Origin: a virus
IMG/VR virus record: IMGVR_UViG_3300044798_000162
Span: 1-63,303 of that record
Strand: one strand, 5' to 3'
Length of the DNA: 63,303 bases
Shown: positions 16,051 through 62,217 of the stretch, piece after piece
Layout of the letters: each line of letters opens with the position of its first letter
Numbering within the stretch: the first letter of the stretch is position 1
Position numbers and translations under genes: made by a program
Notes under the pieces: model-generated
Told to the model about the DNA's origin: nothing
Seen by the model: only the letters and a program-made list of their open reading frames with translations
The model's database searches: none

Positions 16051-16216
16051 GGACGATCTCATTGAGGTTTTCAAGAATCATGGGTGTACCTTTGACAAGG
16101 CTCGTGCCTATTACGCGGGCGAGCCTGAAACTCTTTCCGTGCGGGTTAAGGGCACCTTGTGCGATATTCCCATAGAGGAAATCATTGAGGAGTCGGGCCT
16201 GCCATTTACACAATAA
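16025..16216 (+). CDS. Hypothetical protein, 63 aa
   Basis: MKTKEQKFKDDLIEVF to GLPFTQ, an amphipathic helix followed by a beta segment (ETLSVRVKG). The ATG at 16025 lies inside the end of the previous gene, in another frame. It precedes the OB-fold gene by seven bases and is probably in the same transcript. Function unknown. Confidence 0.55.
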   Translation: MKTKEQKFKDDLIEVFKNHGCTFDKARAYYAGEPETLSVRVKGTLCDIPIEEIIEESGLPFTQ

Positions 16217-16223
16217 TTTTACC

Positions 16224-16943
16224 ATGAGCAACATACTCACCATCGCAGAAGCCCTCGCCCAGCCGGACGGGGCACCCATCGTAGCCGTCGCCGGCACGTT
16301 CAAGGCAGTCTATCCCGTCTATAACGGCACATCCAGCCAAGACGGTTCTCCCTACACGGTTCAAAACGTCCTCCTCTCGGATGGAAGGGCTGAGTGCCGC
16401 GTGGCTATTTGGGACCACCCCGACTGCATCCCCCAAAAAGGTCAGTCGTTTGTCCTGATGTCTACCAAGGCACCCAATGGGCATTTCGGTGGAGTAAGCA
16501 TCCAGCAGGCCAAGAACAAGGACAAAACCCCCAAGACCAACCCCAACGGTAGTCCTGTCCTTGAAATCAAGGTTTCCAAGCAAGGGTGCATCCAGTTCCC
16601 CTCCATAGCCGGCGCGGCCACCTCACCCGCTCCCGCCACCCCAATCCCTCCCGCGACTACCACCCCCCCACCCCCACAGGCAGCCGCTAGCACCCCTGTA
16701 GCCGCTCCCGCCACTACGGCCCCTGTCCTGATACCCCCTGCGCCCGCCTTGGCCACAGGAAAGCCTCCGCTGCCCACCCACGATGATTTTGTGGCGGCTT
16801 TGACCCGCTGCTTCAAGGACTTGCGGGTGGCGTTGCCGCAAGACATTCCGGTACAAGAGGTTGAAAAGCTAGCGGTGACTTTGTTCATCGCGGAGGAAAA
16901 GGCGGGATTGGTGGCGGGAGTGGCAACCAAACAACCCTTTTAG
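16224..16943 (+). CDS. OB-fold single-stranded-DNA-binding-like protein, 239 aa
   Basis: Residues 1-110 look like an OB fold: PIVAVAGTFKAVYPV, YTVQNVLLSDG, ECRVAIWDHPD and GQSFVLMSTK follow the strand pattern of replication-type OB domains. A Pro/Ala/Thr-rich linker (about 125-175) leads to a helical C-terminal domain of about 55 residues. It ends two bases before the nuclease gene, so the pair may work together in DNA processing. Binding to single-stranded DNA is an inference from fold appearance. Confidence 0.55.
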   Translation: MSNILTIAEALAQPDGAPIVAVAGTFKAVYPVYNGTSSQDGSPYTVQNVLLSDGRAECRVAIWDHPDCIPQKGQSFVLMSTKAPNGHFGGVSIQQAKNKDKTPKTNPNGSPVLEIKVSKQGCIQFPSIAGAATSPAPATPIPPATTTPPPPQAAASTPVAAPATTAPVLIPPAPALATGKPPLPTHDDFVAALTRCFKDLRVALPQDIPVQEVEKLAVTLFIAEEKAGLVAGVATKQPF

Positions 16944-16945
16944 CC

Positions 16946-18757
16946 GTGGGTTACATCTCTCACGAATCCTCCTCCCATTTCTATGGCTGGAATGGCACTA
17001 CCGTAACCCCTGAATACGATGCGGGGTTGAAGGAGGCGCGACAACGCGGTCTCTTTGTCAGCCCCACCACGCTAGAGAAGGATGTGCGCTACACGCGGGG
17101 GCTCGACATCTGGAAGCAGAACCAGATCATTGCCGCCGTCCTGCGGGTGTCAACCAAGACCGCCGAGGAGGACGACAAGGCTTACGGAAAGCGCGTCACC
17201 ACCGAAGCCTTCAAGCCGTCGGCCACCGCTAGCGATTTCGGCACCCGCCTTCATGATGCTATCGAGGAATACCCCCAGATGACGACGGAAGCCGCCGTCC
17301 TGCCGTGGATGGAACTTTTCGATGGGTGGTATCACGCCAACATTGAGGAGACCCTCTTTTCCGAGTGCATGGTGGCGCTGCCCTTAATCGGGGTAGCGGG
17401 GCGACTTGACCGGATTGTGCGCCATAAGGAGCACGGCCCCGCAATCATCGACTGGAAGGGCTTGTCGCTTGCAACTCCGCTTCCCACGCCGTCAGGATGG
17501 ACAACAATGGGCGACATTCAAGAAGGAGATAAACTTTTTGGTGCCGATGGAGAAATTTATCCCGTTACCGCCAAATCACCTATTCATTATAGGCGGTGTT
17601 ACCGCATCACTTTTGATGATACCTCTACCATTGAGTGCGACGAAGAACATCTTTGGCGGGTCAGTCATACTTTGACAAAAACCGAAAGAACGGCGGTTTT
17701 TTCATCCCACGAACTAGCAGAAGTGTTTTTAACCAAGAAAAGGGGTGCACGTTTTAAGATTTTCAATGCTACTCCGCTCCAGACCCCTCAAGCCAAGCTT
17801 AAAATCGACCCATATTTATTGGGTGTGTGGCTGGGAGATGGCGGCGAAAAAGAACCGAAGATTAGTTTGGGAGACAAAAAACTCCAAATTGTTGATTACG
17901 TTAAATCCCTTGGTTATGATATTGCTTCCACAAAATGCGATCCTATCACCTATTACATAAAAGACTTCATTGGCGCACTTAAACAATTGGGTCTTTGGGG
18001 TAACAAGCACGTACCCAAACCTTACTTGAGGGCGTCATTTAACCAGCGATTGCAACTCTTGCGCGGCCTAATGGATACAGATGGAACATGGAATAAAAAG
18101 AGAAATCAAGCCGTGTTTTACAACACCAATCCGAGACTCTCCAACGCCGTCTATGAGTTAGTGGTTTCCCTTGGATGGAAGGCAACGAAATACACTGGAA
18201 CGTGGACGGGTTTCGATAGGCATTGTGTGGCCCATCTAGTAACCTTCACTCCATTTGACTATAATCCCTTTTGGATCAATAGTCATAATAAACCATTGGC
18301 CCAACTTAGAATCGAGGGAACCGCCCGAGCAAGGAGACGATTAATTAAGAGTATAACAGCAATGGGTTGCGTACCTACTCAGTGCATACAAGTGGCCTCT
18401 CCCAATAGCCTTTATCTTGCTGGCTCACAAATGGTGCCCACTCATAATACACAAGGCGTTAAGAAACAGCCCGCCTTCTACGACTCATGGCCGCGCCAAC
18501 TCGCCTTCTACCGCGAAGCTGCCGCCGCCCAACTCGGCACCCCCAAGGACGCGACGTGCATCTCCGCCGTGATTGACTCCACCAAACCGACCGCCCCCGC
18601 CATCAGGGTATGGTCGCGGCAGGAGATGGATCGGGCGTGGCTGGCATTCCTTTGCACCGCGTGGCTTTGGTTTGACGGCAACAACTATTGGCCCGTGGGT
18701 TATTGGGAGCCGAAATTCTTTCTGGCCGGGGTTGAACCGCCCCCAAACGAAACCTAG
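16946..18757 (+). CDS. PD-(D/E)XK exonuclease (Cas4/RecB-like) interrupted by an intein, 603 aa
   Basis: GTG start two bases after the OB-fold gene. The nuclease halves are residues 1-171 and 502-603, giving a 273-residue enzyme after splicing. Motifs: FGTRLHDAIE (His), GVAGRLDRIV (Asp) and AIIDWK joined to TQG (Asp-x-Lys), followed by the QLAFYREAAA helix typical of the RecB/Cas4 family. The intein sits exactly inside the catalytic DWK/T strand, so the enzyme should be inactive until spliced. Phage members of this family act in recombination or end processing. The family call is strong; the biological role is inferred. Confidence 0.8.
   Translation: MGYISHESSSHFYGWNGTTVTPEYDAGLKEARQRGLFVSPTTLEKDVRYTRGLDIWKQNQIIAAVLRVSTKTAEEDDKAYGKRVTTEAFKPSATASDFGTRLHDAIEEYPQMTTEAAVLPWMELFDGWYHANIEETLFSECMVALPLIGVAGRLDRIVRHKEHGPAIIDWKGLSLATPLPTPSGWTTMGDIQEGDKLFGADGEIYPVTAKSPIHYRRCYRITFDDTSTIECDEEHLWRVSHTLTKTERTAVFSSHELAEVFLTKKRGARFKIFNATPLQTPQAKLKIDPYLLGVWLGDGGEKEPKISLGDKKLQIVDYVKSLGYDIASTKCDPITYYIKDFIGALKQLGLWGNKHVPKPYLRASFNQRLQLLRGLMDTDGTWNKKRNQAVFYNTNPRLSNAVYELVVSLGWKATKYTGTWTGFDRHCVAHLVTFTPFDYNPFWINSHNKPLAQLRIEGTARARRRLIKSITAMGCVPTQCIQVASPNSLYLAGSQMVPTHNTQGVKKQPAFYDSWPRQLAFYREAAAAQLGTPKDATCISAVIDSTKPTAPAIRVWSRQEMDRAWLAFLCTAWLWFDGNNYWPVGYWEPKFFLAGVEPPPNET
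17459..18448 (+). other. Intein, class 3 type, with LAGLIDADG endonuclease, 330 aa
   Basis: N-terminal block GLSLATPLPTPSGWTTMGD begins with Gly in place of the usual Cys, Ser or Ala; the C-terminal end is MVPTHN followed by Thr in the host protein. The three class 3 hallmarks are present: Trp66 in block B (EEHLW), Cys309 in block F (PTQCIQV) and Thr328 just before the final His-Asn. The central part holds two LAGLIDADG helices (LLGVWLGDGG and LLRGLMDTDG). In this class the block F Cys replaces residue 1 as first nucleophile, so Gly1 does not imply loss of splicing. Confidence 0.85.
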
Positions 18758-26935: not shown

Positions 26936-27185
26936 CTAGAATACTCCGATGGCGGGAATGCTGTCCAGCGCAATCACCAGCGCCACCGGCTTCGTGCACG
27001 CTGTGGTTTCCCCAAGCGAGCGGAAGCCACTCGGCTCGTGCAGCCAGCACCACTCCCACCCGACCACCTCTTCTTTGATCTTCTTCTCCTCAAGCTTGAG
27101 GCGCCAGCCTGCTTGGGAGGCTTGACGGGCGAGAAGCGAGTAGGTGGCATAAGGGGTCGTGGCGCGGGAAGGAGCAGTCTTTTTA
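26936..27185 (-). other. Probable frameshifted C-terminal part of the radical SAM gene
   Basis: The open frame of the radical SAM gene becomes low-complexity Arg/Ser/Pro after residue about 225. In the frame reached by a -1 slip at the five-base A run (plus-strand T run 27180-27184; codons CTA AAA AGA versus AAA AAG), a well-behaved sequence appears: YSLLARQASQAGWRLKL, then EEVVGWEWCWLHEP, ending IPAIGVF at a TAG at 26936-26938. No start codon precedes it in that frame. A sequencing indel and programmed slippage are both possible. Confidence 0.5.
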
Positions 27186-27864
27186 GATTGTGCTTTTGCC
27201 GGATTTCTATGCGGGCTTCGCCAAGTGCGGTGATAAGCGCCGAAACCTTATCAGCAGTCGGCTCCGGTAAGTTGTGCCCCTTGGAGTCGGAGCCGATGTT
27301 CACGAAAGTTGGATTGACTTGGCGCAACCACTCCACAAGAATATCCACGTCAAAGTCGAGGACGGGTTCAATGGTAACGAATTTTGGGTACTCACAAAGC
27401 ACGGAATCCGCCATGGCGAGGTAACGCAATTCTGGAGAAGGAGCCTTGCTTATTTCGGGCAGGTCTCGGTTGGTCTCTATCGTGGTGCCGAGTAGCACGG
27501 CAGGCGGAAGCCGACTTAGAAATGAAGCATATCTCGCCGGATTCTTGGTCTGGAAAACATAGGTGTTGCCCGGCCACTCGCAGCAGTGGGCCAAAATGAG
27601 TTTGATGAAATCGGGGTGAACGCCATCGGCAAACAAATCGCCCATGTGCTCGATGAAGATAGTTCGCCCGCTGCCGTATTTCACACCCTGCTCGCCGGGT
27701 AGCATCCGAATGACACCGGAATATTTGTGCTTCATATCCGGGAAACGCCGCCCCATCGCTTGGACGTAGCAGTATTCGCAGCGGTGCGGACACTCCCCTC
27801 CAAGGTGGTTATGGGTGTGCGTTACCCATGGATACATATTCCCGGCGGATTTCTTAAGTGGCAT
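26974..27864 (-). CDS. Radical SAM protein (phage Gp37/Gp68-like)
   Basis: C-x3-C-x2-C cluster motif at Cys25, Cys29 and Cys32 (GGECPHRCEYCYV). Next come FIEHMGDLFADGVHPDF, TYVFQTKNPARYASF and LGTTIETNRD, the pattern of the radical SAM family found in many phages, whose function is unknown. The frame runs to 296 residues, but the last 70 look out of frame; see the separate frameshift entry. The true product may end near residue 225 or continue through the shift. Confidence 0.65.
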   Translation of the reverse strand: MPLKKSAGNMYPWVTHTHNHLGGECPHRCEYCYVQAMGRRFPDMKHKYSGVIRMLPGEQGVKYGSGRTIFIEHMGDLFADGVHPDFIKLILAHCCEWPGNTYVFQTKNPARYASFLSRLPPAVLLGTTIETNRDLPEISKAPSPELRYLAMADSVLCEYPKFVTIEPVLDFDVDILVEWLRQVNPTFVNIGSDSKGHNLPEPTADKVSALITALGEARIEIRQKHNLKRLLLPAPRPLMPPTRFSPVKPPKQAGASSLRRRRSKKRWSGGSGAGCTSRVASARLGKPQRARSRWRW

Positions 27865-30577: not shown

Positions 30578-31366
30578 ATGAAACACGTTGTTCAGTTTTC
30601 TGGTGGCCTCTGCTCATTTTGGGCAGCCCACCGCGTTATTCAGCGATACGGCAAGGACGCTGTGACACTTCTGTTTGCAGACACGAAGATGGAGGACGAA
30701 GACCTCTACCGCTTCAATAAGGACACCGAGACGGCTCTTGGGGTACCCATCACAACCGTAAGCGATGGCCGGTCGGTATGGGATTTGTTTGACCAGAAGG
30801 GGATGCTCGGAAACAGCCGATTCCCGCTTTGTTCGGTCATCCTCAAACGTGAGGTGCTGGATTGCTGGCGCTTCGCCAACACAACCGCCGACTCCCATAT
30901 TTTCCACCTTGGCCTTGACTGGACTGAGGGGCATCGGATGAATGGTTTCGGCGGCAACGCGGGAATGTTAGAACGTTTTAAGCCTTGGGTCGTTACAGCA
31001 CCAATGATGGACGCGCCGATTTGGGATAAATGTAAAATGCAGCGTGAGTGGACAGCATTGGGCTTCAAACTACCGAGACTTTATGAACTCGGATTTCCGC
31101 ACAACAACTGCGGCGGTTTTTGTGTTAAAGCCGGACAGGCGCAGTTCGCCAAATTGCTTCAACTGTTGCCAGAGCGATTTGCTTTTCACGAAGCCAAGGA
31201 ACAGGCAATGCGCGATCGCACCGGCAAAGATTATAGCATTCTTAGTGACCGGCGTGGCGACGGGAAGAAAAAGGTCCTAACACTTCGCACGCTGCGTGAA
31301 CGGATCGTGGCCGGCGAATCATTTGACCGTGACGATTGGGGCGGTTGTGGTTGTGCTACCATCTGA
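30578..31366 (+). CDS. PP-loop ATPase (PAPS reductase-like) passenger gene, 262 aa
   Basis: Begins MKHVVQFSGGLCSFWAAHRV: the SGG-x-x-S pyrophosphate-binding loop is at residues 8-13. LLFADTKMEDEDLYRFNKD follows, as in phosphoadenosine phosphosulfate reductase/DndC-like proteins. Cys residues in CGGFCVKAGQAQF and a terminal CGC may bind metal. Starting seven bases after a GACAAT box in the left IS end, it is probably driven from the element. A role in sulfur transfer or nucleic-acid modification is possible; substrate unknown. Confidence 0.7.
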   Translation: MKHVVQFSGGLCSFWAAHRVIQRYGKDAVTLLFADTKMEDEDLYRFNKDTETALGVPITTVSDGRSVWDLFDQKGMLGNSRFPLCSVILKREVLDCWRFANTTADSHIFHLGLDWTEGHRMNGFGGNAGMLERFKPWVVTAPMMDAPIWDKCKMQREWTALGFKLPRLYELGFPHNNCGGFCVKAGQAQFAKLLQLLPERFAFHEAKEQAMRDRTGKDYSILSDRRGDGKKKVLTLRTLRERIVAGESFDRDDWGGCGCATI

Positions 31367-31392: not shown

Positions 31393-32268
31393 TCAAGCTA
31401 CTGCGGCGAGCGGCGCACCCGTCCGTCCCGCCATCAGTTCAAACATCGAAGAAGTCTCGCCGACGTAGCGGTTTGAGTACCGGAAAGCAAACTCGTTCAC
31501 GTACTTCTGGAGATGCTTCGCACTGACATGATGATGTGTGCCATCAATCGAGCGTTTCAGTTGGCTCCAAAAGCCTTCAATGCAGTTGGTATGGCAGTGC
31601 CCGCGCACGTACTCCATCGCGCCGTGATTGACGGTGTGGTGTTTGAATCCAAACAACTCGACTGGGTTGTAGATGTTGAACTCATCCGTCACGATGTTTG
31701 CGGCCTGCTCCACATTGGCCCGGATGTGCTTCATCACATTCACCGTGTTGACGCCATCCACGACCGCAGCCCGGACACCACCCCGACGCATGGCGATCCC
31801 AAGCACAGGAGTCTTGCCAGCGGCCCCACGACCCCGTTTGCCGGGCCTCTGACCGCCCACGTAGGTCTCGTCAGCCTCCATGATGCCCCGGAGCTTCTCC
31901 GGCCCGTCCTGCATCAGCTTGCGGATTTCATGGGCCATGCGCCATGCGGTCTTGTAGGTCACGCCGAGCTGGCGTTCCAGTTCCTTCGCGGCCACGCCAT
32001 TGCGGCTGGTGGACATCAGGAAGATGGCGAAGAACCACGAGACAAGCGACGTGCTGGACTTGTGGAAGATCGTGCCGGCGGTCGGGTAAACCTGATGACC
32101 GCACCAGGCGCAGGAATAGGACCGACGCTTCTCAATCGGATGGAAGCAATCCTTCTTGCCGCATTCCGGGCAGGTGCATCCATGCGGCCAGCGCGTCTTA
32201 AACAGGAAATCCAGGCAGGCGCGGCTATCGGGGAACTGAGCTTGAAAGCTGGCTAAGGTGTATTTCAT
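31393..32268 (-). CDS. IS1595-family (ISXO2-like) transposase, 291 aa
   Basis: The N-terminal zinc ribbon (CPECGKKDC ... CAWCG) and helix-turn-helix (KELERQLGVTYKTAWRM) lead into a DDE-type core: ADETYVGGQRPGKRG, NIVTDEFNIYN and NCIEGFWSQLKRSI. These are the family's catalytic Asp, Asp and Glu positions. The gene is full length and undisturbed, so the element could be active. It converges on the passenger gene. Confidence 0.9.
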   Translation of the reverse strand: MKYTLASFQAQFPDSRACLDFLFKTRWPHGCTCPECGKKDCFHPIEKRRSYSCAWCGHQVYPTAGTIFHKSSTSLVSWFFAIFLMSTSRNGVAAKELERQLGVTYKTAWRMAHEIRKLMQDGPEKLRGIMEADETYVGGQRPGKRGRGAAGKTPVLGIAMRRGGVRAAVVDGVNTVNVMKHIRANVEQAANIVTDEFNIYNPVELFGFKHHTVNHGAMEYVRGHCHTNCIEGFWSQLKRSIDGTHHHVSAKHLQKYVNEFAFRYSNRYVGETSSMFELMAGRTGAPLAAVA

Positions 32269-61359: not shown

Positions 61360-61425
61360 AAAGCCCCGCCACGTTTCCTGCGCCCCTTCTTGGCCCTAGC
61401 GGCTGGGAGGGGGTGTTTTTGTGGC

Positions 61426-61454
61426 TTGACAATGTTGGGTGGTGCGCCTAAGAT
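61426..61454 (+). promoter_or_regulatory. Promoter candidate, TTGACA-N17-TAAGAT
   Basis: The same two boxes as the portal promoter. The GIY-YIG ATG at 61462 lies eight bases past the -10 box; the ATG inside the box (61453) is not usable. Confidence 0.6.
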
Positions 61455-61461
61455 GAGGGGG

Positions 61462-62217
61462 ATGAGAAAACCCATCCTCAAAACTGGCGTCTACTATATC
61501 CGAAACGACCGGACGGGTGATTTCTACATTGGGAGTGCGGCCAAGGGGTTCAGGCCTAGGTGGTGGAATCATAGATCGCATCTGCGCGGTCAGTGGCACG
61601 ATAATTCTCGGCTACAAAGGGCATGGAACAAGTATGGAGAGGCGGCATTTACTTTTGGAATATTGGAGCCTTGCACACCCGAAGAATGTATCGAGCGAGA
61701 ACAATATTACATTGATCTATTAAGCCCACCCTATAATTTAGCCCCCACGGCGGGAAGTACGCTAGGGTATAAACATACGGAAGAAGACAAGAAGAAGATG
61801 CGGGGGCGGGTGTGGACGAAGGAGGCGCGGGAAAGGGTTGGTGCAGTTGCGAGAGGAAGGTCAATGCACCCCAATACGCGAGAGGCATTAGCCAAGAGAT
61901 TAGCGAATCAGAATCAATCAGAAGAGACCAAGAAAAAACGCAGTAAGTCCATTAAGGCGTGGTGGGCAACGCGGGGCGAATGGCATCATTCTGAGGAGAC
62001 TAAACGCAAGATACATCATGCCTTGCTTGGTAAAGCGAAAAATATATCGCCCGAAGGAAGGGCGAGAATACTACAATCTCATTTAGGTAAAAAACTTTCG
62101 CTAGCAACTCGGGCAAAAATAAGTGTCAGCAGACTTTTGTACTTAGCTCGTAAAAAAGAGCAGGAAAAGAATAATCTTGACAATCCTGCCAAAGATGCTA
62201 ATGTAGTGCCAACTTAG
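61462..62217 (+). CDS. GIY-YIG homing-type endonuclease with NUMOD3 modules, 251 aa
   Basis: GVYYIRNDRTGDFYIGSA gives the catalytic signature; the later WNKYGEAAFTF and IEREQYYIDLL (Glu) continue it. Several NUMOD3-type modules follow (GYKHTEEDKKKM, HHSEETKRKI, LSLATRAKISVSR). It stands just before the capsid gene. Its last 40 bases carry the promoter that probably drives the capsid. Confidence 0.85.
   Translation: MRKPILKTGVYYIRNDRTGDFYIGSAAKGFRPRWWNHRSHLRGQWHDNSRLQRAWNKYGEAAFTFGILEPCTPEECIEREQYYIDLLSPPYNLAPTAGSTLGYKHTEEDKKKMRGRVWTKEARERVGAVARGRSMHPNTREALAKRLANQNQSEETKKKRSKSIKAWWATRGEWHHSEETKRKIHHALLGKAKNISPEGRARILQSHLGKKLSLATRAKISVSRLLYLARKKEQEKNNLDNPAKDANVVPT
62177..62204 (+). promoter_or_regulatory. 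Promoter candidate for the capsid gene, TTGACA-N16-TAATGT
   Basis: Perfect -35 and a fair -10, both inside the end of the endonuclease coding sequence. It would produce a leader of about 180 bases with strong hairpins. Confidence 0.5.

What the first reader, a model, noticed from the sequence alone, without database searches (positions are those of the whole stretch)
17459..18448. Class 3-type intein with Gly at position 1, placed inside a nuclease active site
The intein interrupts the catalytic Asp-x-Lys strand of a Cas4/RecB-like nuclease. Its first residue is Gly instead of Cys, Ser or Ala, yet the Trp66-Cys309-Thr328 set of class 3 inteins is intact, with two LAGLIDADG motifs. In such a place splicing would switch the nuclease on.
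Basis: partly seen in the sequence, partly recalled or inferred. Interest (0 to 1): 0.8.

Follow-up and report, generated by a model that had tools for sequence, protein, structure and literature searches.

The report
Class 3 intein in phage nuclease
A phage exonuclease gene carries a self-removing protein insert (an intein) right after its catalytic lysine; the unusual glycine at the insert's start is the normal first residue of a widespread family of inteins at exactly this site, so this is a new member of a known kind.

Summary
Window 17459-18448 encodes a 330-residue intein (Gly1, His64, Trp66, Cys309, Thr328-His329-Asn330, C-extein Thr+1, two LAGLIDADG motifs) in a PD-(D/E)XK exonuclease (ORF 16946-18757). 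It sits directly after the catalytic Asp-Trp-Lys, not inside it. By sequence and predicted fold it is a class 3 intein with a probably active homing endonuclease.

Gly1 is not an oddity of this copy. In an IMG/VR sample, 40 of 43 unique class 3 inteins at the nuclease D-x-K|T site start with Gly, against 4 of 127 elsewhere. Gly1 at this site marks largely one lineage, found in actinobacteriophages, a Pseudomonas phage and a gut phage.

Junctions are proven in relatives: removing the intein from Mycobacterium phage Traft412 reproduces intein-less Kugel (825 = 825 nt, no gaps).

Inteins in this motif of Cas4/RecB-like phage nucleases were published for C1 mycobacteriophages (PMC5050341); that allele starts with Ser and groups with terminase inteins. 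Its relative Catera Gp206 splices experimentally.

What remains: Ala1-to-Gly abolished splicing in the AceL class 3 intein, so a natural Gly1 family is a useful test case. 'Splicing switches the nuclease on' is generic and untested.

The parts
16946..18757 (+). Precursor ORF (603 aa, GTG start): exonuclease interrupted by intein
   Evidence: Pfam PDDEXK_1 + LAGLIDADG_3
16946..17458 (+). N-extein (171 aa), ends ...AIIDWK; holds nuclease residues H103, D155, D169, K171
   Evidence: invariant in the alignment of 34 intein-bearing nucleases
17450..17458 (+). Catalytic Asp-Trp-Lys of the PD-(D/E)XK motif, complete and immediately before the intein
17459..18448 (+). Class 3 intein, 330 aa
17459..17461 (+). 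Gly1 codon (GGC)
   Evidence: 40 of 43 inteins at this site have Gly; empty-site proof in relatives
17648..17656 (+). Block B His64 and Trp66 (H-L-W)
   Evidence: both invariant in 40 inteins
17816..17842 (+). LAGLIDADG motif 1 (LLGVWLGDG), D127
18059..18085 (+). LAGLIDADG motif 2 (LRGLMDTDG), D206/D208
   Evidence: Pfam LAGLIDADG_3 E 1.7e-7
18383..18385 (+). Cys309, block F:4 nucleophile of class 3 inteins
18440..18448 (+). Thr328-His329-Asn330 (block G)
18449..18754 (+). C-extein (102 aa), Thr+1, holds the QxxxY motif (Q518)

Best explanation
A mobile class 3 intein of the LAGLIDADG type sits in a phage PD-(D/E)XK exonuclease, directly after the catalytic lysine (D-W-K|T). Inferred chemistry, as for other class 3 inteins: Cys309, activated by His64 and Thr328, attacks the Lys(-1)-Gly1 bond and takes over the N-extein as a thioester; Thr+1 of the C-extein takes the acyl group; Asn330 cyclises and frees the intein; the exteins join as ...IIDWK-TQG.... 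The LAGLIDADG domain probably cuts intein-less copies of the gene around the conserved codons for D-x-K-T and so spreads the intein. Gly1 is an inherited feature of one lineage of inteins specialised on this site. The nuclease becomes a continuous PD-(D/E)XK protein only after splicing, an unavoidable by-product of the site; no regulation is implied. Shown here: anatomy, homology, site, lineage, mobility pattern and exact junctions in relatives. Inferred: splicing, cleavage by the endonuclease and nuclease activity of this very protein.
For: All class 3 signature residues present. Best PDB sequence matches are class 3 DnaB inteins 6bs8, 6rix, 6riy. AlphaFold2 model of the intein mean pLDDT 93.6; Foldseek finds PI-SceI (E 1.8e-18, TMq 0.73) and class 3 mini-inteins (6bs8 TMt up to 0.90). 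Joining the exteins restores a continuous PDDEXK_1 and phrog_298 match. In relatives the junctions are exact: Traft412 minus intein = Kugel, 825/825 nt, no gaps, 97.7% identity; Frankenweenie minus intein = JustBecause, 843/843 nt, 86.6%. Sporadic occupancy: 257 Mycobacterium phage records match the N-extein DNA of Traft412, and only four of the listed intein hits are in that gene. Intein swapping: L010 and L045 have exteins 99-100% identical (dS 0.08-0.19) but inteins 72-80% identical in most of their length (dS above 1); L008/L009 inteins dS 0 while C-exteins dS 0.30. All four Gly codons are used at position 1, dN well below dS in both splicing and endonuclease parts of close pairs. Nuclease residues H103, D155, D169, K171, Q518 invariant in 34 bearers.
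Against: No splicing, cutting or nuclease experiment on this protein. In the AceL NrdHF class 3 intein, changing Ala1 to Gly abolished trans-splicing (PMC7891396), so Gly1 is not automatically harmless. No close intein-less relative of the window's own gene was found; the nearest empty sites are at 28-29% protein identity, so its own junctions are inferred from relatives.
Confidence: 0.93

Rival explanations
1. The intein is a decayed class 3 intein that no longer splices (as the Arthrobacter FB24 Arth_1007 intein), Gly1 being part of the decay, and the nuclease is dead.
For: A decayed class 3 intein of phage origin is known (PMC3196547); Ala1Gly kills the AceL intein (PMC7891396).
Against: All catalytic residues intact, including the His B:10 and Cys F:4 that the decayed example lacks; Gly1 in about 40 distinct inteins with all four Gly codons and purifying selection; nuclease catalytic residues kept.
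Confidence: 0.05
2. The intein is a conditional switch: splicing is held back and released by a signal (redox, metal, infection stage), turning the exonuclease on at the right time.
For: Site is in the active site; the class 3 DnaB intein of M. smegmatis is inhibited by oxidative stress and zinc (PMC6195587, PMC7360933; titles and abstracts); the initiating nucleophile is a Cys in both.
Against: Sporadic presence among near-identical phages (4 among 257) and intein swapping look like a parasite rather than a needed switch; no conserved regulatory feature found; the endonuclease domain is retained.
Confidence: 0.06
3. Gly1 is dictated by the site (Lys(-1) at the end of the nuclease strand) rather than inherited with the lineage.
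For: 40 of 43 at the site have Gly.
Against: The C1 mycobacteriophage intein at the same site has Ser1, one relative has Ala1 and one His1 at D-W-K; the sister of the group, in a RecT gene, also has Gly1; P-loop inteins with Lys(-1) mostly have Ala1.
Confidence: 0.15

Closest known systems
Cas4/RecB-like nuclease inteins of cluster C1 mycobacteriophages (Catera Gp206 family; Kelley et al. 2016, PMC5050341; Pope et al. 2011, PMC3029335)
   Same: Same kind of host protein, same motif and same position (E-L-K|T in ZygoTaiga, L057), class 3, LAGLIDADG; the Catera Gp206 intein splices in a model precursor (PMC3196547)
   Different: Ser1 instead of Gly1; 35% identical; on the tree it groups with Omega-type terminase inteins (support 99), not with the window's intein, though one common clade is not rejected (AU p 0.385)
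'Cas4 family exonuclease' inteins of Streptomyces phage Frankenweenie and Mycobacterium phages Traft412, Zeeculate, Dexes, DiMaria
   Same: Same site D-x-K|T; junctions read for Frankenweenie, Traft412, Zeeculate and DiMaria all have Gly1; full-length alignable, 44% and 38% identity
   Different: Hosts and extein sequences differ strongly; annotated without mention of an intein (Frankenweenie's note says 'intron')
Class 3 DnaB mini-inteins MchDnaB1 / MsmDnaBi1 (PDB 6rix, 6bs8)
   Same: W-C-T triad, His B:10, HINT fold (PMC7664689)
   Different: Position 1 is not matched in the alignment (Gly1 lies outside it); no endonuclease; in the DnaB helicase
AceL NrdHF split class 3 intein (PMC7891396)
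   Same: Class 3 mechanism
   Different: Ala1, Met instead of Trp; its Ala1Gly mutant is dead, which the natural Gly1 family contradicts as a general rule if it splices

Membership tests
Class 3 inteins | Trp at B:12, Cys at F:4, Thr at G:5 | tested here: met
   W66, C309, T328; columns align with 6bs8/6rix and are invariant in 40 relatives
Class 3 inteins | No Cys/Ser/Thr nucleophile needed at position 1 | tested here: met
   Gly1; boundary set by empty sites in relatives
Class 3 inteins | HINT fold | tested here: met
   AF2 pLDDT 93.6, Foldseek to class 3 inteins TMt up to 0.90
Class 3 inteins | Block F Cys branched intermediate / Cys-dependent splicing | not testable with these tools
   needs expression and a Cys309 mutant
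LAGLIDADG homing endonucleases | Two LAGLIDADG motifs with catalytic acids | tested here: met
   D127, D208; Pfam LAGLIDADG_3
LAGLIDADG homing endonucleases | Cuts the intein-less allele | not testable with these tools
   population pattern only
PD-(D/E)XK nucleases | H, D, D-x-K and QxxxY residues, profile match | tested here: met
   PDDEXK_1 44.3 bits on joined exteins; residues invariant
Cas4 proper | Cys cluster for an Fe-S centre | tested here: not met
   The window's exteins show no C-terminal CxxC...C cluster (sequence), while part of the relatives do (consensus)
D-x-K Gly1 intein lineage (grouping made here) | Site D-x-K|T/S/C, Gly1, clade with the others | tested here: met
   branch support SH-aLRT 93, not starred

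The most novel reading that the evidence does not exclude
Class 3 inteins of the nuclease D-x-K site form an ancient family with a natural Gly1 whose N-junction chemistry differs from the strained-bond model drawn from the AceL intein (Ala1Gly dead), so they must activate the Lys-Gly bond in another way, and might be useful as traceless splicing tools.
Probability: 0.2. Interest if true: 0.5.

Novelty: new member of a known kind. Interest (0 to 1): 0.3.

Why it matters
That gives splicing chemists natural Gly1 class 3 inteins with which to test the claim, drawn from one Ala1Gly mutant, that glycine at position 1 abolishes class 3 splicing. It also extends the published C1 mycobacteriophage case to phages of several host groups and shows recent intein exchange at the catalytic motif of a recombination exonuclease.

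Tried and rejected
Two collection scans with mis-spaced patterns returned nothing because of my spacing error; corrected. The spliced extein as query found only one distant viral locus and seven phage records at 28-29% identity, so a close empty site for the window itself could not be had; empty sites of Traft412 and Frankenweenie were used instead. Counting EGK P-loop sites as D/E-x-K inflated the first table; they were taken out by hand (L094, L099, L105, L117, L119, L122), as was the terminase L110. The Fisher test was run with 2 rather than 3 non-Gly inteins at the site; the effect is negligible, and it does not correct for relatedness. Constraining all 40 D-x-K inteins, the C1 Ser1 intein included, to one clade was not rejected (AU p 0.385), so two separate invasions of the site are favoured but not proven. 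Trees from the splicing part and the endonuclease part alone need 3-4 changes of site. Tori and Perler 2011 (PMC3133030) is not held, so what it says on position 1 of Catera Gp206 was not read; Ser1 was read from ZygoTaiga instead. NCBIfam gave no match; no tRNA or Rfam match in the window.

Full report
What is there. Pfam sees LAGLIDADG_3 and PDDEXK_1 in the precursor. The record is a virus contig of IMG/VR.

Intein class. The closest solved proteins by sequence are the class 3 DnaB inteins of mycobacteria (6bs8, 6rix, 6riy; E 6e-23 to 8e-22), and the Trp, Cys and Thr of the window line up with theirs. The AlphaFold2 model built on 40 relatives has mean pLDDT 93.6; Foldseek finds PI-SceI (HINT plus LAGLIDADG, TMq 0.73) and the class 3 mini-inteins (TMt up to 0.90). 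His64, Trp66, Cys309, Thr328, His329 and Asn330 are invariant in 40 aligned relatives.

Host protein and site. With the intein taken out, the 273-aa product matches PDDEXK_1 at 44.3 bits (25.5 before) and PHROG exonuclease families (phrog_298, 64.2 bits, 41.9 before), the matches running across the junction. Across 34 intein-bearing relatives G99, H103, D155, D169, K171 and Q518 are invariant, the usual PD-(D/E)XK set. The intein lies after K171, so Asp-x-Lys itself is not split. Two intein-less relatives (Stenotrophomonas phage S72; Caudoviricetes ctpbd312) run through this point without a break. The protein is a PD-(D/E)XK exonuclease; it lacks the C-terminal Cys cluster that part of the relatives have, so 'Cas4' should be read as 'Cas4/RecB-like' only.

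Is Gly1 odd? Among 170 unique N-termini, after removing P-loop and terminase look-alikes by hand, 40 of 43 inteins at nuclease D-x-K sites begin with Gly (1 Ala, 2 near-identical His) against 4 of 127 at other sites, where Ala (after P-loop GK) and Pro dominate. All four Gly codons occur at position 1 (GGG 12, GGC 11, GGT 8, GGA 7), so the amino acid is conserved, not the DNA. A tree without residue 1 puts 39 of 40 D-x-K inteins in one group (SH-aLRT 93), with L186, a Gly1 intein in a RecT gene (Pfam RecT 1e-49), as sister. The exception is the C1 mycobacteriophage intein (ZygoTaiga, L057; E-L-K|S...N|T), which has Ser1 and groups with an Omega-type terminase intein (support 99), in line with the published RecB/TerL1-d grouping (PMC5050341). 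The AU test does not exclude one clade for all 40 (p 0.385).

Exact boundaries and mobility. The N-extein DNA of Traft412 matches 257 Mycobacterium phage records; the listed intein hits in that gene are four, Traft412, Zeeculate, Dexes and DiMaria. Taking out exactly Gly1..Asn330 from Traft412 gives 825 nt, aligned to the 825 nt of Kugel gp74 without a gap at 97.7% identity, junction VVDYK|TGLK against VVDWK|TGLK; the same holds for Frankenweenie and JustBecause (843/843 nt, 86.6%). Differences in Traft412/Kugel lie mostly near the junction, as co-conversion would give, but the numbers are small. L010 and L045 have nearly identical exteins (dS 0.08-0.19) with inteins at dS above 1; L008 and L009 have identical inteins at synonymous sites and C-exteins at dS 0.30. 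This is the pattern of inteins exchanged at the site.

How it works. Inferred from the class 3 mechanism (PMC7664689; PMC7891396): Cys309 attacks the Lys-Gly1 bond, Thr+1 takes the acyl group, Asn330 cyclises, exteins join. The endonuclease keeps the element mobile. The AlphaFold2 model of the precursor (mean pLDDT 75.6) has its lowest confidence at both junctions (residues 168-172 and 503-513) and says little about nuclease masking. No sign of regulated splicing was found; masking of the nuclease before splicing is likely but is a feature of any intein placed in an active site.

What is known and what is not. Class 3 inteins in the PD-(D/E)XK motif of Cas4/RecB-like phage nucleases are published (PMC5050341), and the Catera Gp206 intein of that family splices (PMC3196547). 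I found no paper in the held library on the Gly1 group, but key papers are not held. The one point of tension is that Ala1Gly abolished splicing of the AceL intein (PMC7891396); a natural Gly1 family makes this testable.

Verdict. Observation confirmed, interpretation partly supported, novelty modest: a new member of a known kind, within a site-specific Gly1 lineage that is delimited here.

Noticed in passing
L186:1083-3047 (-): Class 3 Gly1 intein inside a phage RecT recombinase (...WEEMAKK|G...THN|TVIRR...), sister to the nuclease D-x-K intein group; RecT is a usual partner of such exonucleases (from own knowledge).
   Followed up: partly
L079, L120, L084: Inteins at the same D-W-K nuclease site with His1 (L079/L120, near-identical) and Ala1 (L084, cut by contig end): natural position-1 variants.
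   Followed up: partly
L117, L144, L200: Gly1 class 3 inteins at P-loop-like sites, outside the nuclease group on the tree: Gly1 arose or was kept more than once.
   Followed up: no
L010 versus L045: Near-identical nuclease exteins carrying clearly different Gly1 inteins, a recent intein replacement.
   Followed up: partly
window 31393-32268 (-): IS1595-family transposase (ISXO2-like domain with zinc ribbon) in the phage contig.
   Followed up: no
window 61390-62217 (+): GIY-YIG endonuclease with NUMOD3 motif, apparently a second, free-standing homing endonuclease.
   Followed up: no
window 30578-31366 (+): Phosphoadenosine phosphosulfate reductase-like protein (phrog_424).
   Followed up: no
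window 16185-16943 (+): Gene directly upstream of the nuclease; no Pfam or PHROG match, by eye an OB-fold-like N-terminal half, perhaps a single-strand DNA binding partner.
   Followed up: no
window 26974-27864 (-): DUF5131 protein (Pfam E 3.4e-13).
   Followed up: no
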